A stretch of 64,000 bases of DNA from a virus: IMG/VR virus record IMGVR_UViG_3300022752_000036, positions 31,646-95,645 of that record. The stretch is one strand, 5' to 3'. The notes beneath the pieces are model-generated. The model ran no database searches, was not told where the DNA came from, and worked only from the letters and a program-made list of their open reading frames with translations. How positions within the stretch are numbered: the first letter of the stretch is position 1; the number at the start of each line of letters is the position of its first letter. The translations under genes and the position numbers were made by a program. This document shows positions 32,153 through 62,533 of the stretch, one piece after another.

Positions 32153-33451
32153 CTAGTAATAGACGTATAAATCGCCAGCTGCTGTACCCGTTGGTGGTGT
32201 TCCAGTTTGATTATAAAATATTTTATTTGTGTTAGCAGTATTTGTGCCATTTGAATAAGCTGTTGCTACTCCTGCCGCACCTGTAGCGCCTGTAGCTCCT
32301 GTTGGGCCTGTTGCACCTGTAGCACCAACACCAGTTGGTCCAGTTGCTCCTGTTGGACCAGTAGGGCCTGCTACTGTGCTTGCTGCGCCTGTAGGGCCAG
32401 TTGCCCCAGTAGGGCCTGTTGGACCTGCTACTGTGCTATTAGCACCTGTTGCGCCAGTTGCTCCAGTAGGGCCTGTAGGACCTGCTACTGTGCTTGCTGC
32501 GCCTGTAGGGCCAGTTGCCCCAGTAGCACCAGTTGCTCCTGTCGGTCCTGTTGGGCCTGCTACCGTGCTATTAGCACCAGTTGCTCCAGTCGGTCCTGTT
32601 GGGCCTGCTGAGCCTGTTGCACCTGTAGCACCTGTTGGACCAGTAGGGCCTGCTACTGTGCTATTAGCACCTGTTGCGCCTGTAGCACCTGTAGGGCCTG
32701 TTGGACCTGCTACTGTGCTATCAGCGCCTGTAGCGCCTGTAGGGCCAGTTGCTCCTGTGGGACCTGCTACACCTGCTGGACCTGTTGGACCTGTAGGTCC
32801 TGCTACTGTGCTATTAGCACCTGTTGCACCTGTAGCACCTGTAGGGCCTGTTGGGCCTGTAGTGCCTATTGGTCCTTGAATATTTCCTACGTTATCCCAT
32901 TCAGAGTTAATGCTATCCCAAACATACAAATCTCCTTGAATTAGATATGCATCACCTGGAGATGCTGTTGGATGTGCTGATTGTAATGCTGCTAAAGAAT
33001 TATAAGAACCAAGAATTGTTACTCCAGTTCCTTGTGCTCCTGTTGCACCAGTTGGTCCAACTAATCCTTGAGGACCTGTAGATCCATTTGCTCCTGCAGC
33101 ACCTGTTGGGCCTGTTGGGCCTGTTGAGCCAGTTGGGCCTGCTGTACCATTAGATCCTGTTGCGCCTGTAGGGCCAGTAGGTCCAGTTGCGCCTGTAGCG
33201 CCTGTAGCGCCTGTTGCGCCTACGCCTGTAGCGCCTGTAGAGCCTGTAGGGCCTGTAGGGCCTGTAGCGCCTGCTACGCCTGCGCCTGTAGCGCCTGTGG
33301 CGCCAGTAGGGCCAGTGGGTCCTGTTGGGCCTGGATGAGCAGTTAGGTAATCGTCTATATCTTGAGCCAAATATCCTAAATCTCTAGGTATGTCAGGAGA
33401 CATATCCAGAGATGGATATCTAAAATTCTTAGGCGTCAAGTTGCTAGGCAT
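32153..33451 (-). CDS. collagen-like tail fibre protein 1
   Basis: 432 residues, most of it Gly-X-Y triplets (GPT, GAT, GPA). Two collagen-like runs are split by a ~60-residue beta module ([32 protein letters not shown]). The N-terminal 38 residues are a non-collagen anchor. The C-terminus ends in a short [12 protein letters not shown] segment that may nucleate trimerisation. Threonine is the commonest Y residue, as in glycosylated bacterial collagen-like proteins. A -10 box TATAAT lies 6 bases before the ATG, suggesting a leaderless transcript. It would form rigid triple-helical fibre shafts. Confidence 0.88.
32270..33335. repeat. Gly-X-Y coding tandem repeats (9-nt periodicity)
   Basis: Degenerate tandem repeats of the type ggXcctgtX, encoding GPT/GAT triplets, in two blocks (about 32270-32870 and 33040-33335). 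Longer units of 60-80 bases containing the ACAGTAGCAGG core recur many times on the minus strand. This invites slipped-strand or recombinational length change. Confidence 0.8.
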
Positions 33452-33453
33452 TT

Positions 33454-34527
33454 TTAAATTATACCACTTTCACGGTTCTGAGCACTATGATAGAACCCTA
33501 AATTATCGTGCAATCTTTGATCATCGCTATTAAAAGATATTGCTATTTCTCCATGCCTTGAAGCATCCTCAAATAGGCCTAAATTATAGCTTGCTAAAGC
33601 TAGCAAATCATGTGGCTTCCAACCCCAAGCATCAGCTTCACAAAAATAATCAAGATATTTATCCTTGATGTTTAAAGCTAACTCTGAATATTCTTTTACT
33701 TTATTCCAATCTTGCATGTTATAAAAATGTTGTGCAAGATCAACATAAGGTTCTCTTCTTTGTGGACATTCTGCAATTGCTTGTCTTAACCAAAATTCTT
33801 CGTTCATTGGTTCACATTTTGCAATGTATCTCATAGACTCACATCTTTCTGGCTTCCATTGTGATAATGGCAAAGATAAATGTCTTTTAAATTCTTCTGC
33901 TGCTTCTTTATATCTAGCATGAAAAAATAATTCTCTTGCATAATAATGTGCACATCTGTCGCTTGCAGGATCTTCTTTTGCTGCCATTTCTAAAAGCGGA
34001 AGATATTGTCCTCTTGATTTATTATTATCTGGCAAATGATATATTTTTACATTTATCTTTTGTCTTATTTCATCTATTCCATAATAACTTACAGATTCAT
34101 GAATAGGAAATTTCCACCTATGACCGTGGCGAGCATGCATTCTTAATGCATCAAACTCTACACCTGGTTGTCCAGCCTCTGTTATGTGAGTTACTAAAGT
34201 ATGTATTGGTCTAGTAACATTAGATCCTTCTAAAGATTCTAATTCTTTTCTCCAGCCTTCAGATAAAACTTCATCCATATCTAAAGATATGCAGTAGTCT
34301 ATATCTGATGGAAGTAAAGACAAAGCCGCATTTCTAGCGTCATCAAATCGCCAAGGGGATATAGATATTTGGAATACATTGATTCCTAATGACTTTGCTA
34401 TTTCTGCGGTTTTATCTGTTGATCCTGTATCTGCAATTAAAAGATAATCTGCATCTTTAGCAGACTGATACCATCTTTCAACAAACTGCTCTTCATTTAA
34501 AGCAATTGTATATACTGCTATTTTCAT
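33454..34527 (-). CDS. family-2 glycosyltransferase with TPR-like C-terminus
   Basis: 357 residues. The N-terminal ~200 residues are a GT-A glycosyltransferase of family 2: [28 protein letters not shown] (nucleotide-binding) and [13 protein letters not shown] with the DxD-type metal site (DMDE). The C-terminal part has helical TPR-like repeats ([20 protein letters not shown], then [15 protein letters not shown]), a combination also found in protein O-glycosyltransferases. It lies between two collagen-like fibre genes in the same orientation, so glycosylation of their Thr residues is a plausible role (inference). Cytoplasmic, no signal peptide. Confidence 0.85.
33458..33466 (-). promoter_or_regulatory. 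extended -10 promoter candidate before collagen-like gene
   Basis: Minus strand TGGTATAAT, an extended -10, six bases before the ATG of the collagen-like gene at 33451. It lies inside the stop region of the glycosyltransferase gene. No good -35 is seen. If used, the transcript would be leaderless. Confidence 0.35.
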
Positions 34528-34553: not shown

Positions 34554-36944
34554 TTAACCAATTATGGTAAATGTGCCCTTCATTGATGAATGGAATTGAC
34601 ATATATAATACAAAGTATTTGGAGCATCAGCAGGAACAATCCATTTAATTCCTCCGACATCGTCTCCATTATTAGTTACTCCAGAATTATATTGATCACC
34701 TGTTCCAATTGTTTGTGCTGTTTTAATCCAGAATGGATGCCCTGCAGCATTTACTGTAAAGAAATATGCTTGTCCACGAACCAAGGTTAGTGTTGGATTG
34801 TCTAATCCATTTATTGTATAAGCTCCAGAACCAGTATTTACTACTTGATAATTTTGAATAATTGCTATTCCATCCGCCCCAGTTGGTCCTGTTGGACCTG
34901 TAGGACCACCTGATGGACCTGTTGGACCTGTAGGACCTGTTGCTCCTGTTATACCTGCTCCAGTAGCCCCTGTTGCGCCTGCTGCACCTGTTGGTCCTGT
35001 TGCGCCTGCTGGGCCTGTAGGACCTTGAATGCTTGATCCATTTGCACCAGTTGGTCCTGTTGCGCCAGTTGGACCTGTTGCGCCAGTTACGCCTGCTGCA
35101 CCAGTTGGTCCTGTTGCGCCTGCTGGGCCTTGAATACTTCCTACATTTGTCCAGGCTGAACCTGTCCAAACATATAGGTTGCCTTGAATTAAATATCCAT
35201 CTCCAAGCTGACCAGTTGGTTTTGCAGTTTGTAATTCTGCTAAAGTATTATATGTTCCTAATATTTTAACGCTTGTTCCATCTGCACCAGCAACTCCTGT
35301 TGCTCCCGTAGGGCCTGTTGCACCTGTTGGTCCTGTTGGGCCAGCAACGGTTGATGCTGCACCTGTAGCACCAGTTGCACCAGCAGCTCCTGTTGGGCCT
35401 TGCTTAAGAGTAAAATTAAGAACTAAATCTGTTGTTGTTCCACTATTTTGAATTGCAGAAGTACCTGTTGGTCCAGTATCTGTGACTGTTCCTATTGTTA
35501 TTGTTGTTGGTCCTGCTGGACCAGTAGCTCCTGTTGGACCTTGTTTAAGAGTAAAGTTTAATATAGCAGCATCAGTAGTTCCACTATTTGTAACTGTTGC
35601 GTTTCCAGTTGGACCTGTGGATGTTACTGTTCCAACATTAACTGTTGCTACTACTCCAGTAGGTCCTGTAGGTCCTGTTGGACCTTGTTGCAAAGTAAAA
35701 TTAAGTAATGCATTTTGAGATGTTCCAGCATTTGTAACTGATGGCGTTCCAGTAGGACCAGTTGCTGTTGTTGTTCCGACTGAAATTGTAGCAGGACCTG
35801 TGGCTCCAGTTGGACCTTGAAATTGTCCAGCATCTACCCATACTGTTCCGTCCCATACATACAAATGCAAATCTGTTAATACAATCCACGAATCACCATT
35901 TGTATTTCCTGTTGAAGGAAGTGCAGCAACATTTGCTTTTGTTCCTTTAATATTAATTGATCTTCCAGCCGCTCCTGTTGGGCCTGTTGCTCCAGTAACG
36001 CCTGTAGCTCCTGTTGGGCCAACTGCTCCAGTAGGGCCTGTAAATCTTCCGCCATTAACCCATGCTGTTCCACTCCATATATATAATTCGCTTGTATCTT
36101 GAACTAAATATGTAGCCCCTAAAGGACCTGATACTGGAAGTGCTGCTAAATTAGCAACTGTTCCTTGTAAAGTAAGTGATTGTCCAGTAGCGCCTGTTGC
36201 TCCAGTTGGGCCTGTTGCACCTGCAACGCCATTTGCTCCTGCAGCACCTGTAGGCCCAGTTGCGCCTGATGAGCCTGAAGTTCCTGGATTACCAATTACA
36301 GCAAAAACCCAATCTGCTAAAGTTCCAGATCCATTTTTAGTATCTACGCTTACTGATATGCTTACATTTTTAACAACTTGTGTAATTATACCTTCTACAT
36401 AAGTTGTAACATTAAGAGGATTAATTACACGAACTCTTTGTCCTGCTGTATATGCTCCGCTATTGTTTACATAAAATACTTTTAGACCAGTGCTCACTTG
36501 AATAGATGTTGTTGATGTTACATCTGAGTATCCTGCTCCCGTTGCGCCCGTGGTTCCTCCGCCACCAGTTCCAGCTGAAAGGGTACCAGACATGTCTATT
36601 CCAGATATTGTAAGAGAAAAACAATTTGGAGTGGTTGTCACTGCTGCAATTGATTCTCCTGCAGCCAATATCAATGAATGCTCTAGTCTTAAAGTTGTAT
36701 TATTTGGAACATTTACATTTCCATAAAGAGTATATGGATCAAGACTTGATCTGTTTACATTATAAAGGTTTATTACCTGATCACCATTTTCACCAAGCAA
36801 GAATATGCTAAATGGTAATGTTGAACCACTAAAATTTGTTACAGTAAACTCTTTAATAATAATTGGAGATACTGCAGTGTATATTTTTGCTGGTGATGAA
36901 GGTATTAATGATGGTCCAGCAAATCTAATTGGAGCATATGACAT
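34554..36944 (-). CDS. collagen-like tail fibre 2 with C-terminal cupredoxin-like domain
   Basis: 796 residues. A beta N-terminal anchor (1-130) is followed by Gly-X-Y runs broken by two kinds of repeated beta module: three 'VANLAALP ... LYVWDG' modules and three '[11 protein letters not shown] ... LNFTLKQ' modules. The last ~100 residues (695-796) form a cupredoxin-like domain: His736 in AAGHPFWIK, and Cys782, His785, Met788 in [12 protein letters not shown], the spacing of amicyanin-type blue-copper sites. The preceding Tyr/Phe-rich strands fit the Greek key. It would place a metal-binding head at the fibre end. A paralogous head occurs in the fibre at 53822-55255. Confidence 0.82.
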
Positions 36945-47275: not shown

Positions 47276-47896
47276 CTAAAATATCATGCTTGTTGCTAAA
47301 AGCGTAGCATTGTTTTGTGTCATGTTTGTTAAGAATTGATACTTTGGATAATAAACTCCAAGGTTTAAAACTTGGTCTGCTTTCCAAGAGTTTAATTCAT
47401 TAATTACATTTTGAACTGCTGTTTCACCAGCTGGTCCTGTAGCACCAGTTGGTCCCGTGACTCCTTGTGCTCCGTTATTTCCTGCTGGACCTTTTAAGTT
47501 TCCTTGAAGGACCCATGTACTGTTGTTAGAATTATACTGAAATAAATCTCCAGTTGTTGTATTTAAATATGTATCTAGTCCAGCTTTATTTGCTGGATTA
47601 TTTGAAGTAGGATTATTAATTCCTACAAACGTGTAAGTTCCTCTTGCTCCCGCCACACCTTGTGCTCCAGGTGCACCAGCAGGACCAGTAGGTCCTTGAG
47701 GAATTTGAAAATTAAATATTGCAGCACTAGATGTTCCGCCATTTGTAATTTGTGCTGGTGTTCCTGCTGCAACAGTTGTTACTGTTCCAACAGAAATAGT
47801 TGCTGCTGGTCCCGTTGGTCCAGTAGCACCTTGGGGTCCTGGTCTTGATCCTGCGACTGTTACCCAAGAGGATCCGTTCCATCTTTTTAGTGACAT
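47276..47896 (-). CDS. short collagen-like fibre protein, 206 aa
   Basis: Gly-X-Y runs ([40 protein letters not shown]) alternate with the same beta modules as in the larger collagen-like fibres (ISVGTVTTVAAGTPAQITNG ... FNFQIPQ and FVGINNPTSN ... NSTWVLQGNL). The C-terminal ~45 residues are helical and end in SMIF. The N-terminus SLKRWNGSSWVTVAGSRPG is a short anchor. Likely a trimeric linker between larger fibre parts. Confidence 0.75.
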   Translation of the reverse strand: MSLKRWNGSSWVTVAGSRPGPQGATGPTGPAATISVGTVTTVAAGTPAQITNGGTSSAAIFNFQIPQGPTGPAGAPGAQGVAGARGTYTFVGINNPTSNNPANKAGLDTYLNTTTGDLFQYNSNNSTWVLQGNLKGPAGNNGAQGVTGPTGATGPAGETAVQNVINELNSWKADQVLNLGVYYPKYQFLTNMTQNNATLLATSMIF

Positions 47897-50835: not shown

Positions 50836-51576
50836 TTAGTTATATTTCTTTCTGTTCCAGTATTTCCTTTTATAGTAACCTATAGAGCCTTTTTCATGAG
50901 ATTTACTGTCAATCTTGTTTCTAGACATTAAAATCTTACTAACTTGCATTTCCCAGTCTTGTCTCTTAAAAGGAAGCAGTTGTGCAATAGGGGTATTTTT
51001 TTTAATAACCCCTTCAAAATCTTCTCTTAGAAAAAATGGAATATTTCCACTTGGCACCCACCCATCACTATCTATTATTCCAGACAATGTTGTAAATGGT
51101 AGATCGTGTCTATTGAATGGATGCGTTACTAAAACAGAGTATCCTCTTGGGACCTTCCAGCCCCATTTTCCAGACCATACAAAATGATTTTGCATATGTC
51201 CTGCTGGTCTTGGAATTGTTGAGCCTGTAGATGACTTTCTTTCATTAATAAGTCTGCTGACTATTTGATTTTCTTCAACCTTATGATTGTGAGAATGTCT
51301 TTTTTTGTACGGCTCAAAAGATCCGTCCTCTTTAAGAACGCCATCTTCTATATATAAAACTCCATCTTCTTTATATATTCTAACATCATCAATTGTTGTC
51401 AAAACATATCCAGATAACATTACGTCTAAAAATGGTACGCAAGTTTTTAATGCTGCGGAACCATGTTCATCATATGTTTCTCCATCTTTATACCACTGAG
51501 GTATATGATTTTTTACTGGAGACGGAACAATTATATTTTCCAACCCTATAGATGGAACAAATTTAATTTTTTTCAT
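50836..51576 (-). CDS. DUF6065-like protein, paralogue 1
   Basis: 246 residues with an N-terminal IIVPSPVKNHIPQWYKD, LKTCVPFLDVMLSGYVL, then HFVWSGKWGWKVPRGYSVLVTHPFNRHDLPFTTLSGIID split over residues ~130-175, and FEGVIKKNTPIAQLLPF, ending in a Lys/Arg-rich tail (YYKRKYWNRKKYN). It is clearly paralogous to 61823-62533, with HPFNRHDLPF against HPLNRDDLPF and identical tail pattern. This family occurs in aquatic phages and some bacteria; the compact cupin-like strands and conserved His/Asn/Asp suggest a possible Fe(II)/2-oxoglutarate or other metal-bound enzyme, but that is speculation. Confidence 0.65.
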   Translation of the reverse strand: MKKIKFVPSIGLENIIVPSPVKNHIPQWYKDGETYDEHGSAALKTCVPFLDVMLSGYVLTTIDDVRIYKEDGVLYIEDGVLKEDGSFEPYKKRHSHNHKVEENQIVSRLINERKSSTGSTIPRPAGHMQNHFVWSGKWGWKVPRGYSVLVTHPFNRHDLPFTTLSGIIDSDGWVPSGNIPFFLREDFEGVIKKNTPIAQLLPFKRQDWEMQVSKILMSRNKIDSKSHEKGSIGYYKRKYWNRKKYN

Positions 51577-52475: not shown

Positions 52476-53822
52476 TTAATTTACCCTAAATTCGTCAATA
52501 GTGTACCCTTGGCTTGCATTTGAAGCTCTTGAAATTATACCATGCTCTTTTGACTTTTGTCCAGAGTGGGTTGCTGTTAAATCTGAACCAACCTGAGAGG
52601 TTAAATTAGTATCTGAATAAGCTTTAGCTGTAATATTATCTCCGCTTAATGTAACCTGTATTCCCTTAATATCTGTGGTCAAATTAGTTGTAGATCCTAC
52701 AACTGTTTCTGTGCCAGAAACTTTTTTAACTAAGTCTATTTTATGATGGTCTTGGCAACTGCAATTAAATGTGTAATAAGAAGCGCAACCGCAGCTAGAA
52801 TTAGGTCCGTATGAATATCCACTACAATATGTGCATTGGTTATATGCAGCACATACTGTACAGGGTGTATATCCATTGCAGTATGTACAGTTATTGTTTA
52901 CAGAACATATAGTACAACTTGTATAAGAAGTGCAGCAACTTTGTTGTGCGTATCCATTACAAACTGTACAAGTTCCATATCCAGTACAATATAGACATGG
53001 TCCATATCCTAAACAAGTTGAAACTACACATGTTGTATACCCTGCACAAGCCTGACATGCTCCATATGCGCTACAACTTGTTACTGCACAAAGATAGTAT
53101 GTTGAACATATAACACCGCCTTTATATGCATTATAAGTATAAGCAGCACAGCAAGAATATGAATAATATGTATATTGACTTGTACAACATGTGTAAGTAT
53201 AATAAGAAGAACAGCAAGTATAATAGTAATCTGAATATCCTGCTGAACAACACGCATAATATCCATATGATGTACAACAAGATTGAGTTGTATATGAGTT
53301 ACAAACAGTACATGTTCCATACCCGTTACAACAAGAAGTTGTTGTATATGAAGCACATCCACAACTAGAATGCTGTCCATATGCATATGAATTACAGCAT
53401 GATGTTGTTGTATAAGAAGCACAGCCACAACTTGAATCTGATCCGTATGAGTATGAACTGCAATATGAGCAGCTATTATAAGATCCACATGCGGTACAAG
53501 TTTGACATAAATTTGTAGTATTTTTAACTACTGCCCAGTAATTGCCAGAATCTGTTACCCAAAAAGCAGGGCCTACTCCAGATGCTGGATTTTTAGCTTT
53601 TAGTACTGCATCTGTTGAAGAAAACATTGTAGATATTAAGGAGCCAATTGACGAGGTTGTGCCTTTCCCGCCTGAAACTCCCCATCCTGAAACTACCGTT
53701 CTCCATTTGGCAGATGTAGATCCAGCATTTTCTAATGTGGCTCTAGAAAAATTTTCTACAAGAGAAAGCAATGCTTTTAGTCTAGAAGCAATGACATTTA
53801 CTCTTCGTTTTTTTGCTGGCAT
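52476..53822 (-). CDS. LamG-like adhesin with Cys/Tyr nonapeptide-repeat insert
   Basis: 448 residues, ATG 53822 overlapping the previous stop (TAATG). Residues 1-104 and 358-448 form the two halves of a ConA/LamG-like beta-sandwich (NFSRATLENA, SGVGPAFWVTDSGNYWAVVK / HKIDLVKKV, GIQVTLSGDNITAKAYS, YTIDEFRVN). Between them, ~253 residues hold 50 cysteines (about 20 %), plus abundant Tyr, Ser, Thr. Most fall in 9-residue units of form xxYxxCxxC (NGYTPCTVC, TGYGTCTVC) or xxYxxxxCC (NSYTTQSCC). No known Cys-rich family fits. The phage cytoplasm is reducing, so either disulfides form after lysis or the cysteines bind metal. Likely a virion adhesin. Confidence 0.8.
   Translation of the reverse strand: MPAKKRRVNVIASRLKALLSLVENFSRATLENAGSTSAKWRTVVSGWGVSGGKGTTSSIGSLISTMFSSTDAVLKAKNPASGVGPAFWVTDSGNYWAVVKNTTNLCQTCTACGSYNSCSYCSSYSYGSDSSCGCASYTTTSCCNSYAYGQHSSCGCASYTTTSCCNGYGTCTVCNSYTTQSCCTSYGYYACCSAGYSDYYYTCCSSYYTYTCCTSQYTYYSYSCCAAYTYNAYKGGVICSTYYLCAVTSCSAYGACQACAGYTTCVVSTCLGYGPCLYCTGYGTCTVCNGYAQQSCCTSYTSCTICSVNNNCTYCNGYTPCTVCAAYNQCTYCSGYSYGPNSSCGCASYYTFNCSCQDHHKIDLVKKVSGTETVVGSTTNLTTDIKGIQVTLSGDNITAKAYSDTNLTSQVGSDLTATHSGQKSKEHGIISRASNASQGYTIDEFRVN
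52752..53510 (-). repeat. 27-nt (9-residue) Cys/Tyr repeat array
   Basis: Encodes the 253-residue insert. The repeat is mainly 27 nt long with 33- and 39-nt variants; about 25 units are seen. Codons are almost only TGT/TGC, TAT, TCA and ACA/ACT. Units differ in sequence, so the array is old or under selection rather than a recent slippage product. Confidence 0.75.
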
Positions 53823-55255
53823 TATGCAGTTGTATCTCCTGTAATGTACCAAGAATTAGTTGAATGTTTTTCTGCTACAATTGAAGAATACTGGACTCTG
53901 GTTTTAAATCCGCTATCTGCTGCTACTGCGGTGGCTGGGCTTGTAACAGAAATTGTTACTTGTCCTGTGCCCATTTGTCTAATTTCAAAATATGATCCTA
54001 TTGGAAATATTGTATCTCCAACATCATTTGGAATAGTAATTGTAACTGGCGAATTAGATGATGAATGAATTATTTTATATAGATCTGTTGCCGCAATAGT
54101 TCTTGTTGTTCCAGATTGACTTATATATTGCAATTTATCATCAGATTTTAAATTTAAAGCTGTTTGAGTTGCTGTTGATATTGGTTTATTAGCATCAGAT
54201 GTATTATCTACATTTGATAGATTTGCTATTGCTTTTGCTGTAGCAGATCTATTTCCTACAAATATTGTGCCTGCCATTGATGCGTGATATTGACATGCAT
54301 AAAATAAGCTTGGCTCTGGTGCAGACTGACTCAGTTCTACTAAAATAGAACCATTATCTGTTCCGTTGTTTGTTATTCCTGTTGAATAAACATTTCCAGA
54401 ACTATAGGCTCCCGAAACAGTTTGAATCCAAAATGGATGCCCTGGTGCATTAACAACTATTCTATATCTTTTACCTTTTTCAAAATAGAGTGTTCCATTA
54501 GCTATACCATTAACTGTATATGATCCCATTCCAGCATTTGTTATATAGTAATCTATTGAAGCTTCTGTTTTTGGAACATATGTAGCTGTAGCTGTAGAAG
54601 TATCTAGCTTAGTTCCAAGTGATGTTGTTACAGTTGATGCAAATGAAGCATCATCATTTATTGCTGCCGCCAATTCATTTAAAGTATCAAGCGTAGATGG
54701 AGCAGAATCTATAAGATTTGCTATTGCAGTTGAAATTGCTGTATTTCTATTTGTAACTTCTGTAGATATTGCTGAAGATAATTCTGAGTCTCTAGTTATT
54801 CCAGGTGGCAACTGAGAATTAGGAACATATCCGTCTCCGTCAAGTTCTGCTACACCGTCGGCATTACCCATAAGAGATAATGGAATATATCCTGTAGTTA
54901 TGGTATTAGAAAGACCATTAATTGCTGTGTCTACATATGTTTTATTTGCAATTACAGATGTATCTACATCAATTGTAAGTGTACCTGGATTAGATCCTTG
55001 ATCATCATAAGTTAAATCTATTCCTGTTCCACCTATTAATGTATCTCCTAAATAATCTTGAACTAATTCAAGCAGTTCTGCTGGAGTTGTATTTATATAA
55101 GGCAAAACCTGCCATCTTGAAGTTGCATCATTTGCAATTCCTACTTTAAATTTTTTATTTGTTGTATCATAACCCATTTCTCCTGCCTGCAAGATTGGAT
55201 TATTTGTTGTCCAGTTTGACGCTGTATCTCTTCTTATCTGTATTCTAATTGCCAT
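53822..55255 (-). CDS. tail fibre with MTD-N-like anchor and internal cupredoxin-like domain
   Basis: 477 residues. The N-terminus (MAIRIQIRRDTASNWTTNNP, then QAGEMGYDTTNKKFKVG) matches the major-tropism-determinant N-terminal type used by many fibres. Residues ~125-215 share IPLSLMGNADGVAELDGDGY and LDTLNELAAAINDDASF with the 47935 fibre. Residues 232-335 are a cupredoxin-like domain: His273 in APGHPFWIQ, and Cys321, His324, Met327 in YACQYHASMAG. The C-terminal ~85 residues form a beta tip. This architecture places the metal-type site inside the shaft rather than at its end. ATG overlaps the previous stop. Confidence 0.82.
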   Translation of the reverse strand: MAIRIQIRRDTASNWTTNNPILQAGEMGYDTTNKKFKVGIANDATSRWQVLPYINTTPAELLELVQDYLGDTLIGGTGIDLTYDDQGSNPGTLTIDVDTSVIANKTYVDTAINGLSNTITTGYIPLSLMGNADGVAELDGDGYVPNSQLPPGITRDSELSSAISTEVTNRNTAISTAIANLIDSAPSTLDTLNELAAAINDDASFASTVTTSLGTKLDTSTATATYVPKTEASIDYYITNAGMGSYTVNGIANGTLYFEKGKRYRIVVNAPGHPFWIQTVSGAYSSGNVYSTGITNNGTDNGSILVELSQSAPEPSLFYACQYHASMAGTIFVGNRSATAKAIANLSNVDNTSDANKPISTATQTALNLKSDDKLQYISQSGTTRTIAATDLYKIIHSSSNSPVTITIPNDVGDTIFPIGSYFEIRQMGTGQVTISVTSPATAVAADSGFKTRVQYSSIVAEKHSTNSWYITGDTTA

Positions 55256-59958: not shown

Positions 59959-60960
59959 TTATAAAAACTTTTTTGAAAGTCTTTCAAATGCATTCTTAGT
60001 CAACTGATCCCAGTTATACTCCTTATGTATTTGCTCTGCTTGTGCATAATAATAACCAAAATAAGGCTTACTATTTATAACTACATCATACATTAAATCT
60101 TCTAAATGTTGATTATCTGGCTTAAACATTTGTCCAACATGTGGATCTCCTACAGCTTTAGGTAAAGTATCACTTGTTAGTTTAGACTTTAATTTAAGTG
60201 GCCCTATAAACTTTTTATAATGTGACCAATCATATGTTGAAATTACTGGCATTCCTGTTGCTAATCCTTGTATTGGAATAAATCCAAATCCTTCTCCCCA
60301 TGAAGGATAAACTAAAGCATGATGGCGGTGGAATAAAGAAACTAAATCCTGTTCTGAATATTCTTCTGTAATAACAGTAATATTATTATATGCTTTATCT
60401 GGATTTACAAATTCATTATTTCTATCATATACTCTAATTGTGCTAAAGCTATGTGCTTTTATAGTTAAATGATAATCTGGGTTATTACCAAACAATTTAA
60501 TGAAAGTATCTACTACTAATTGTCCGTCTTTTCTTGGAGATGGTTCGCCTACATGTAAAAACTTAAACGGTTCTCCTTGTTTTAAAATTCTTTTTTTAGG
60601 TTTCCAAATATCCTCTACTCCGTGTGGATAAACATATATTGGTTTAGTTACACCGTTATTTCTAAAGACTTCTGCAACCCAATCTGAGGTTGCCCATACT
60701 TCATCACAAAAATTAAATTTTTCTACCCAGTCCTGCCTCATAGACGTGGACTCCCATGGAGTATATCCAATTTGATATTGATTTCTGTGTAGCTTAAAAT
60801 GATGAGGTTGTGTAAAGTTTAATTGAATATCAGATTTTGGATTTGCAAATGAAACTTCATATCCTAAATTATTTAAAGATCTAACTATATTTTTCCCAGC
60901 GTAGCCAAAACCAACTGCTGGATTGAGCCCTGCTTTAATTGTATAATAGGATATTTTCAT
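59959..60960 (-). CDS. GT4-type glycosyltransferase (GT-B fold)
   Basis: 333 residues. N-terminal Rossmann domain (MKISYYTIKAGLNPAVGFGY), inter-domain FLHVGEPSPRKDGQLVVDTF, and the C-terminal donor-binding motif YPSWGEGFGFIPIQGLATG (glutamates 236-243 in an E-x7-E-like arrangement), all standard for GT4 retaining glycosyltransferases. No signal peptide. It starts the minus-strand side of a divergent gene pair with the secreted lysozyme-like gene. It could modify virion proteins, phage DNA or host surface sugars; which one is not shown by the sequence. Confidence 0.88.
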   Translation of the reverse strand: MKISYYTIKAGLNPAVGFGYAGKNIVRSLNNLGYEVSFANPKSDIQLNFTQPHHFKLHRNQYQIGYTPWESTSMRQDWVEKFNFCDEVWATSDWVAEVFRNNGVTKPIYVYPHGVEDIWKPKKRILKQGEPFKFLHVGEPSPRKDGQLVVDTFIKLFGNNPDYHLTIKAHSFSTIRVYDRNNEFVNPDKAYNNITVITEEYSEQDLVSLFHRHHALVYPSWGEGFGFIPIQGLATGMPVISTYDWSHYKKFIGPLKLKSKLTSDTLPKAVGDPHVGQMFKPDNQHLEDLMYDVVINSKPYFGYYYAQAEQIHKEYNWDQLTKNAFERLSKKFL

Positions 60961-61611: not shown

Positions 61612-61833
61612 GTGCAAAAGATACAATACGTATCTAAATACATAGCCCTATCAGAGGAAGGCCTTGTTCCTAGACTTATTTGTCCTATGGATCAGGGCCT
61701 TCTTCTATGTAATATGTCTATCAACGAAGAAATATTTTTATACTGTATATCATGTAATTATAAACAATATCTTGGTAATGCTATGTATGATAAAATAGTA
61801 GCCCTAGTAGAAAAGAATTTAAATGAAGCCTAA
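61612..61833 (+). CDS. zinc-ribbon-like small protein, 73 aa
   Basis: GTG start at 61612 with AAGGAGG at perfect spacing. Two pairs of cysteines (CPMDQGLLLC and CISC) suggest a zinc-ribbon. The first half is beta-rich, the end is helical. It overlaps the next gene by 11 bases. Very short zinc-ribbons of this type recur several times in this phage. Role unknown. Confidence 0.6.
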   Translation: MQKIQYVSKYIALSEEGLVPRLICPMDQGLLLCNMSINEEIFLYCISCNYKQYLGNAMYDKIVALVEKNLNEA

Positions 61834-62533
61834 AAAGCTACAATACGACGTATACCATCCTGTGTTCGAACCCATAACATACATGAAGAATGTTATGCCA
61901 GAATGGTTTAAGAAAATTGATAAATTCCATGGCGGAAAATTAAGCATTGTACCTTACAACACAATAACAGTAAAAAGCTGTGCTCCATTCATGGATGCTT
62001 TTTTAACTGGATATTGCATGCCTGCGCCCGTAGACTTTTTAGTAGAACAAACACCAATGGGTCCAAAAATAAGTTGGAGCTGGTTTGATGTAGATGAAAT
62101 ATATAAAGAAACAGATTTTGTAATTGAACGAGATAAGAATATGATTCCCACTTTGCCAATACCAAAGGGATATCATGACAATCATTTTTCTTGGGGAACA
62201 AAACAAATATTAAAAGTAGAAGACGGCTATAGCCTTTTGATCACCCACCCTTTAAACAGGGATGATCTGCCTTTTAGGACACTTTCAGGAGTAGTTGATG
62301 CTAACTATGCAATGAACGGTGGAAAATTGCCATTCCTCCTCCAGGAAGGTTTTGAAGGCATCATAAAGGCTGGCACACCGATAGCTCAAATCATTCCTAT
62401 AAAAACAGAATCTTGGGTTTTAGAAAGAAATGAAAATTTATTAAAAGAAGCAAAGCTGGCAAGAAATGAATCAGTAAAAACAATTATTGGTTGGTATAAA
62501 AATAAATTCTGGAAGAGAAAGGAATACAACTGA
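61823..62533 (+). CDS. DUF6065-like protein, paralogue 2
   Basis: 236-residue paralogue of the protein at 50836-51576. Shared blocks: MPEWFKK, TVKSCAPFMDAFLTGY, HFSWGTKQILKVEDGYSLLITHPLNRDDLPF split across 135-165, TLSGVVDANY and FEGIIKAGTPIAQIIPI, ending in WYKNKFWKRKEYN. It is on the opposite strand and in a different operon. Conserved His, Asn, Arg and Asp in THPLNRDDLPF suggest an active or metal site. No enzyme class can be named from the sequence. Confidence 0.7.
   Translation: MKPKKLQYDVYHPVFEPITYMKNVMPEWFKKIDKFHGGKLSIVPYNTITVKSCAPFMDAFLTGYCMPAPVDFLVEQTPMGPKISWSWFDVDEIYKETDFVIERDKNMIPTLPIPKGYHDNHFSWGTKQILKVEDGYSLLITHPLNRDDLPFRTLSGVVDANYAMNGGKLPFLLQEGFEGIIKAGTPIAQIIPIKTESWVLERNENLLKEAKLARNESVKTIIGWYKNKFWKRKEYN

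What the first reader, a model, noticed from the sequence alone, without database searches (positions are those of the whole stretch)
33454..34527. Glycosyltransferase encoded between two Thr-rich collagen-like fibre genes
A GT2-TPR protein lies exactly between two genes whose Gly-X-Y runs have Thr at many Y positions. In Bacillus spore collagen-like proteins such GPT repeats are O-glycosylated. A phage that glycosylates its own collagen-like fibres would have a way to shield or tune receptor binding.
Basis: inference. Interest (0 to 1): 0.65.

Follow-up and report, generated by a model that had tools for sequence, protein, structure and literature searches.

The report
Phage enzyme likely sugar-coats collagen-like fibres
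This freshwater virus of bacteria carries, between two genes for collagen-like tail fibres, an enzyme that very probably attaches sugars to the threonines of those fibres; the same enzyme-collagen pairing recurs across many viruses, plasmids and bacteria, so it looks like a real functional module and not chance neighbours.

Summary
A 357-aa glycosyltransferase (GT2 domain plus TPR-like helices) lies 2 and 26 bases from two co-directional collagen genes whose Gly-X-Y runs carry Thr at Y in 77% and 63% of triplets. The linkage is not chance. In the close phage clade the upstream collagen gene is always adjacent. In 146 gut Bacilli genomes the GT and collagen co-occur (Fisher p 1e-19), with 31 of 69 pairs within 3 kb (0.6 expected). 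Clostridia repeat this (32 of 33 GT+ genomes have collagen, 70 of 212 without the GT). Plasmids show the same pairing. Thr at Y tracks the GT in three comparisons: medians 0.64 vs 0.34, 0.72 vs 0.26, 0.65 vs 0.12. Distant relatives in jumbo phages are not adjacent to collagen, and collagens there have 9-17% Thr. Nearest solved structures are peptide and protein glycosyltransferases (SunS/ThuS, GmaR). Architecture and gene context match C. difficile SgtA, shown in vitro to put beta-O-GlcNAc on Thr of BclA3 collagen repeats. Best reading: a phage-borne, SgtA-like enzyme that O-glycosylates Thr of the phage's own collagen fibres. Sugar, occupancy and purpose (stability or masking) are untested. 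New variant of a known kind.

The parts
33454..34527 (-). GT2-TPR glycosyltransferase, 357 aa; GT-A-like domain about residues 1-175, TPR-like helical pairs about 175-354
34273..34281 (-). DxD motif (D83-M84-D85, D83 and D85 invariant across 49 phage and bacterial homologues), expected metal/nucleotide-sugar site
   Evidence: invariant columns D83, D85, E86
34096..34116 (-). W138-x-x-P141-x-H143-E144 motif, invariant; the H-E also aligns with GmaR and SunS
34554..36944 (-). Thr-rich collagen-like fibre protein, 796 aa, five PF01391 stretches; always directly upstream of the GT in the close phage clade
32153..33451 (-). Thr-rich collagen-like fibre protein, 432 aa; 77% Thr at Y; directly downstream of the GT (present in part of the clade, replaced by a 577-586 aa non-collagen gene in the rest)

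Best explanation
The gene encodes a soluble, cytoplasmic GT2-TPR polypeptide O-glycosyltransferase. During assembly it binds the newly made collagen-like fibre chains of this phage and transfers a sugar from a nucleotide donor to the Thr hydroxyls at Y of their Gly-X-Thr repeats. Shown here by sequence comparison: fold and domain order, invariant DxD, operon-like linkage to Thr-rich collagens, recurrence of the pair across phages, plasmids and chromosomes, and Thr-at-Y enrichment where this GT is present. Inferred: the donor (UDP-GlcNAc, by analogy with SgtA), the beta linkage, and that the TPR-like half does the substrate binding. Also inferred is the effect: sugars stabilise and hydrate a triple helix that lacks hydroxyproline, and coat the fibre surface. 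Effects on receptor binding or masking would be secondary and are untested.
For: Close clade: all 34 GT loci with upstream sequence have a collagen gene 13-28 bases upstream of the GT; 20 also have one downstream. Bacilli: 95 genomes with GT and collagen, 5 GT only, 10 collagen only, 36 neither, p 9.6e-20; 31 of 69 within 3 kb vs 0.57 expected. Clostridia: 32 of 33 vs 70 of 212, p 5e-13; 13 of 24 within 3 kb vs 0.13 expected. GT tree: 63 of 96 scorable homologues have collagen within 3 kb, needing 21 state changes, so linkage was gained or lost repeatedly. Thr at Y: GT+ vs GT- relatives 0.64 vs 0.34, p 4e-5; pattern-based sample of viral collagens 0.72 vs 0.26, p 0.002; Clostridia 0.65 vs 0.12, p 8e-5. 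Plasmid neighbours 96-100% Thr at Y. Foldseek: SunS/ThuS top, E 1.9e-16; sequence profile: GmaR, SunS. Precedent: SgtA, 358 aa GT-A+TPR, immediately upstream of bclA3, beta-O-GlcNAc on Thr of collagen peptides in vitro (PMC7157674).
Against: No biochemical data on any phage member. Direct sequence comparison with SgtA could not be made. About a third of the homologues have no collagen within 3 kb, and one GT+ contig of 27 surveyed has no collagen at all (G031). PHROG names the family beta-1,4-glycosyltransferase, as for LPS enzymes. Some collagens without this GT are also Thr-rich, so Thr at Y does not require it. Genomes compared are related and often incomplete, so p-values overstate independence.
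Confidence: 0.78

Rival explanations
1. The GT modifies the host cell surface (LPS O-chain, teichoic acid or exopolysaccharide) to exclude other phages, and sits in the fibre region because that region collects host-interaction genes.
For: This is the usual reading of GTs in the hypervariable fibre region of pelagimyophages (PMC7029224) and one reading for freshwater actinophages (PMC10202952). PHROG calls the family beta-1,4-glycosyltransferase. Jumbo-phage relatives at about 33% identity are not near collagen, and their collagens carry little Thr.
Against: Does not explain why the same GT tracks collagen genes in bacterial chromosomes and plasmids or why Thr at Y rises with it. No polysaccharide pathway genes lie beside it. 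Best structural matches are peptide glycosyltransferases.
Confidence: 0.09
2. The GT glucosylates phage DNA to protect it from host nucleases.
For: Proposed for GTs of Nanopelagicales phages (PMC10202952).
Against: No DNA glucosyltransferase among the best 50 structural matches; TPR-containing SunS-like fold; homologues in bacterial chromosomes beside collagen genes. Base-hydroxymethylating genes were not specifically searched for here.
Confidence: 0.02
3. Hitchhiking: Thr-rich collagens and a GT are both common in fibre regions and sit side by side by chance or by inheritance within one clade.
For: Window and close relatives share one inherited arrangement; Thr is the commonest Y residue in Gram-positive bacterial collagens, 48% (PMC8968730).
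Against: Adjacency in unrelated bacteria at 50-100 times expectation, 21 state changes on the GT tree, and within-genome and between-genome Thr contrasts.
Confidence: 0.04
4. The GT is a protein glycosyltransferase but its main substrate is another phage structural protein, the collagen repeats being a minor target.
For: GT2-TPR enzymes of this fold act on various proteins (GmaR on flagellin, SunS on a peptide). Some GT loci lack nearby collagen.
Against: Recurrent collagen partner and Thr-at-Y correlation.
Confidence: 0.07

Closest known systems
SgtA / BclA3 of Clostridioides difficile (PMC7157674)
   Same: Enzyme size (358 vs 357 aa), N-terminal GT-A domain and C-terminal TPRs, gene directly beside a collagen gene, Thr in collagen repeats as the acceptor
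   Different: Spore coat instead of virion; in C. difficile the GT is upstream of the collagen gene, here it lies between two, with the conserved partner upstream. Sequence identity to SgtA was not measured
SunS / ThuS peptide S-glycosyltransferases (PDB 7msn, 7msp, 7msk)
   Same: Best fold match over GT and helical domains (TM 0.66, E 1.9e-16); H-E region aligns
   Different: 16-18% identity, modify a Cys of a glycocin peptide; NCBIfam SunS score 19.8 against a cut-off of 350
GmaR of Listeria (22ao, 7x9r), flagellin O-GlcNAc transferase and antirepressor
   Same: Best PDB sequence match for the GT domain (E 5e-12)
   Different: Flagellin substrate and antirepressor role (own knowledge); no such role suggested here
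Mimivirus L230 collagen lysyl hydroxylase-glucosyltransferase (PMC9614988)
   Same: Virus-encoded enzyme that modifies virus-encoded collagen
   Different: Different enzyme type (human GLT25D1-like), acts on hydroxylysine; here Thr and no hydroxylase
Peribacillus frigoritolerans plasmid p16118 collagen + GT pair (L246)
   Same: Same gene order (collagen then GT), 41% GT identity, 96% Thr at Y
   Different: Bacterial plasmid, single collagen gene, function untested

Membership tests
GT2 fold (Pfam PF00535) | Profile score above the curated cut-off and DxD motif | tested here: met
   32.6 bits vs cut-off 23.3; D83/D85 invariant
SunS S-glycosyltransferase (TIGR04195) | Equivalog cut-off of 350 bits | tested here: not met
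   19.8 bits: same superfamily, not a member
SgtA-like collagen O-GlcNAc transferase | GT-A + C-terminal TPR, about 358 aa | tested here: met
   357 aa, model and profiles; SgtA description from PMC7157674
SgtA-like collagen O-GlcNAc transferase | Gene adjacent to a Thr-rich collagen gene | tested here: met
SgtA-like collagen O-GlcNAc transferase | Sequence homology to SgtA itself | not tested
SgtA-like collagen O-GlcNAc transferase | Transfers GlcNAc to Thr of collagen repeats | not testable with these tools
   Needs an enzyme assay or virion glycoproteomics
PHROG 13126 'beta-1,4-glycosyltransferase' | Profile membership | tested here: met
   E 2.8e-117 over 353 residues; the name itself is annotation, not a tested function
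Collagen-like fibre proteins (PF01391) | Gly-X-Y repeats above cut-off in both neighbours | tested here: met
   103.6 and 58.7 bits vs 27.2

The most novel reading that the evidence does not exclude
A Thr-collagen plus SgtA-like GT pair is a widespread, exchangeable two-gene module, shared by phages, plasmids and bacterial chromosomes, that builds glycosylated collagen fibres on virions and on cell or spore surfaces. In phages, Thr-glycosylation replaces proline hydroxylation as the way to make stable triple-helical tail fibres, so many aquatic phages carry glycoprotein fibres.
Probability: 0.45. Interest if true: 0.78.

Novelty: new variant of a known kind. Interest (0 to 1): 0.64.

Why it matters
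GTs in the fibre regions of aquatic phages are usually read as tools to alter the host surface or to protect phage DNA. This evidence points instead to phages glycosylating their own fibres, with a named substrate, residue and position. It makes the idea directly testable with one enzyme and one peptide. It offers a rule (GT next to collagen with Thr at Y) for predicting glycosylated virions from sequence. It also gives bacterial and phage enzymes that could be tested for making stable collagen without hydroxyproline.

Tried and rejected
Chance adjacency: rejected. SunS family membership: not met. First collagen DNA pattern was misframed and gave 9 irrelevant hits; corrected. Jumbo-phage homologues (PaBG, Lu11, HRDY3, NCTB) turned out to be a negative control: GT beside DNA ligase, collagen 18 kb or more away, 9-17% Thr at Y. 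No paper in the library was found that describes glycosylated phage tail collagen. The 42-44 of 48 collagen rate among GT+ viral records was not used as evidence alone because it lacks a matched control. Literature support for glycosyl-Thr stabilising Gly-Pro-Thr helices was sought and not found in the library; that point rests on my own recollection of work on worm cuticle collagen.

Full report
OBSERVATION. ORF 33454-34527 on the minus strand encodes 357 aa. It scores above the Pfam cut-off for Glycos_transf_2 and matches PHROG 13126 over its whole length. The flanking ORFs 34554-36944 and 32153-33451 are both PF01391 collagen proteins. All three are co-directional; the gaps are 26 and 2 bases. 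In runs of at least four Gly-X-Y triplets Thr is at Y in 45 of 71 (upstream) and 69 of 90 (downstream) triplets, and at X in only 2 and 2. Thr outside the repeats is 12-15%. A third collagen gene at 47276-47896 has 7 of 19.

WHAT THE ENZYME IS. The AlphaFold model is confident (pLDDT 95): a mixed alpha/beta N-terminal domain to about residue 175, then paired helices. A profile of the family finds designed TPR proteins over residues 186-349, and GmaR (flagellin O-GlcNAc transferase) and SunS/ThuS (peptide S-glycosyltransferases) over the catalytic domain. Foldseek's best PDB matches are SunS and ThuS (E 1.9e-16, TM 0.66), then TPR proteins, TarS, GmaR and the O-GlcNAc transferase TPR domain. 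Across 49 phage and bacterial homologues D33, D83, D85, E86, H131, W138, H143, E144, K170 and R172 are invariant. It is not a SunS member: 19.8 bits against a cut-off of 350.

IS THE ADJACENCY CONSERVED? A scan of viral contigs gave 80 best loci. In the close clade (at least 68% identity) every one of the 34 loci with upstream sequence has the collagen gene 13-28 bases upstream of the GT; the downstream collagen is present in 20 loci and replaced by a 577-586-aa gene in others. These loci are not independent of each other. More distant phage GTs (50-60% identity) have mixed neighbours, but nearly all have collagen genes on the contig. Portal-anchored relatives of the window phage without this GT fill the same fibre region with other gene sets.

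BACTERIA AND PLASMIDS. Eighty homologues at 39-53% identity were found in bacterial genome contigs, mostly gut Bacilli and Clostridia; many have a collagen gene within a few ORFs. Co-occurrence was then tested. Among 146 genomes of one Bacilli order: 95 have both, 5 GT only, 10 collagen only, 36 neither (p 9.6e-20); in 31 of 69 a collagen match lies within 3 kb of the GT against 0.57 expected under uniform placement. Among 245 genomes of a Clostridia class: 32 of 33 GT+ genomes have collagen against 70 of 212 GT- (p 5e-13); 13 of 24 within 3 kb against 0.13 expected. The match lists were truncated, so adjacency counts are lower bounds. Relatedness and incomplete assemblies inflate the co-occurrence p-values; the adjacency excess does not depend on completeness. 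On plasmids, a Peribacillus 16-kb plasmid has 'collagen-like protein' then 'glycosyltransferase' (41% identity), and Priestia plasmids have distant GTs next to collagen genes. On a tree of 102 GTs, 63 of 96 scorable ones have collagen within 3 kb and the label changes 21 times.

THREONINE TRACKS THE ENZYME. If the GT acts on Thr at Y, Thr at Y should be enriched where the GT is. (a) Whole phage contigs: median 0.64 in 25 GT+ against 0.34 in 8 GT- relatives, p 4e-5; 9 of 19 GT- contigs have no collagen at all, against 1 of 27 GT+. (b) A sample of viral collagens chosen by a DNA pattern that leaves Y free: 7 GT+ median 0.72, 66 GT- median 0.26, p 0.002; of 22 contigs with at least 55% Thr, 6 carry the GT, of 40 with under 30% none. 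(c) Clostridia: 0.65 against 0.12, p 8e-5. (d) Negative control: jumbo phages whose distant GT sits by DNA ligase and a head protease have collagens with 9-17% Thr at Y. (e) Plasmid neighbours have 96-100%. Published background for bacteria is 31.6% overall and 48.3% in Gram-positives (PMC8968730).

MECHANISM. C. difficile SgtA (358 aa, GT-A domain then TPRs, gene immediately upstream of bclA3) transfers beta-O-GlcNAc from UDP-GlcNAc to Thr of collagen-repeat peptides in vitro, and its loss removes the GlcNAc signal from spores (PMC7157674). Size, domain order, gene context and substrate composition match. I therefore read the window gene as a phage-borne SgtA-like enzyme that modifies Thr of its own two fibres. 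The donor and sugar are inferred by analogy. The TPR-like half probably grips the chain, as the TPR part of FlmG binds flagellins (PMC7591256). The effect is open: hydration and stabilisation of a triple helix without hydroxyproline is the reading I favour; shielding or receptor tuning is possible and untested.

NOVELTY. Virus-encoded collagen glycosylation is known in Mimivirus through a lysine-directed enzyme (PMC9614988). Reports on freshwater actinophages and pelagimyophages noted GTs and collagen-like proteins or fibre regions but assigned the GTs to DNA protection or host-surface change (PMC10202952, PMC7029224). I found no report of glycosylated phage tail collagen in the library, which holds open-licence papers only. 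I class this as a new variant of a known kind. A WhiB gene in the same record suggests an actinobacterial host.

LIMITS. No biochemistry. SgtA's own sequence was not compared. GT- controls in (a) are few and come from one clade. Fragmentary contigs can hide a GT.

Noticed in passing
L453:5634-7307 (+): In another viral contig a collagen gene with 67% Thr and 28% Lys at Y is followed by a 2OG-Fe(II) oxygenase and a protein with PLOD-type GT and GT25 domains: a second, hydroxylysine-type collagen modification cassette, reminiscent of Mimivirus L230.
   Followed up: partly
L460:660-2624 (+): A collagen gene with 80% Thr at Y is followed directly by a group-1 (GT4-like) glycosyltransferase, so other GT families may have been recruited to the same task.
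   Followed up: partly
L393:884-5016 (-): A 411-aa protein with a faint GT2 match (E 2e-9 to the family profile, none in Pfam) lies between two Thr-rich collagen genes, the same layout as the window.
   Followed up: partly
L001:18433-20004 (+): In Actinomycetia phage DSL-LC01 a tryptophan-halogenase-like FAD enzyme (Pfam E 5.5e-50) overlaps the start of the GT gene, downstream of several collagen genes.
   Followed up: no
window 34557-34844 (-): The C-terminus of the upstream collagen fibre ends in [14 protein letters not shown], resembling a cupredoxin copper site (weak match to auracyanin, E 0.2); not established.
   Followed up: partly
window 53822-55255 (-): Protein with a major tropism determinant N-terminal domain (Mtd_N, E 4e-13) in the fibre region.
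   Followed up: no
window 59959-60960 (-): A second glycosyltransferase (Glycos_transf_1 E 2e-7), possibly extending or priming glycans.
   Followed up: no
window 50836-51576 (-) and 61823-62533 (+): Two proteins of similar opening sequence with no Pfam or NCBIfam match; by eye they resemble each other.
   Followed up: no
window 53326-53483 (-): 66-base tandem repeat inside the 458-aa ORF 52476-53852, which has no Pfam match.
   Followed up: no
G000:C1:11305-11478 (-), outside the window: WhiB-family gene (E 3e-13), pointing to an actinobacterial host.
   Followed up: yes
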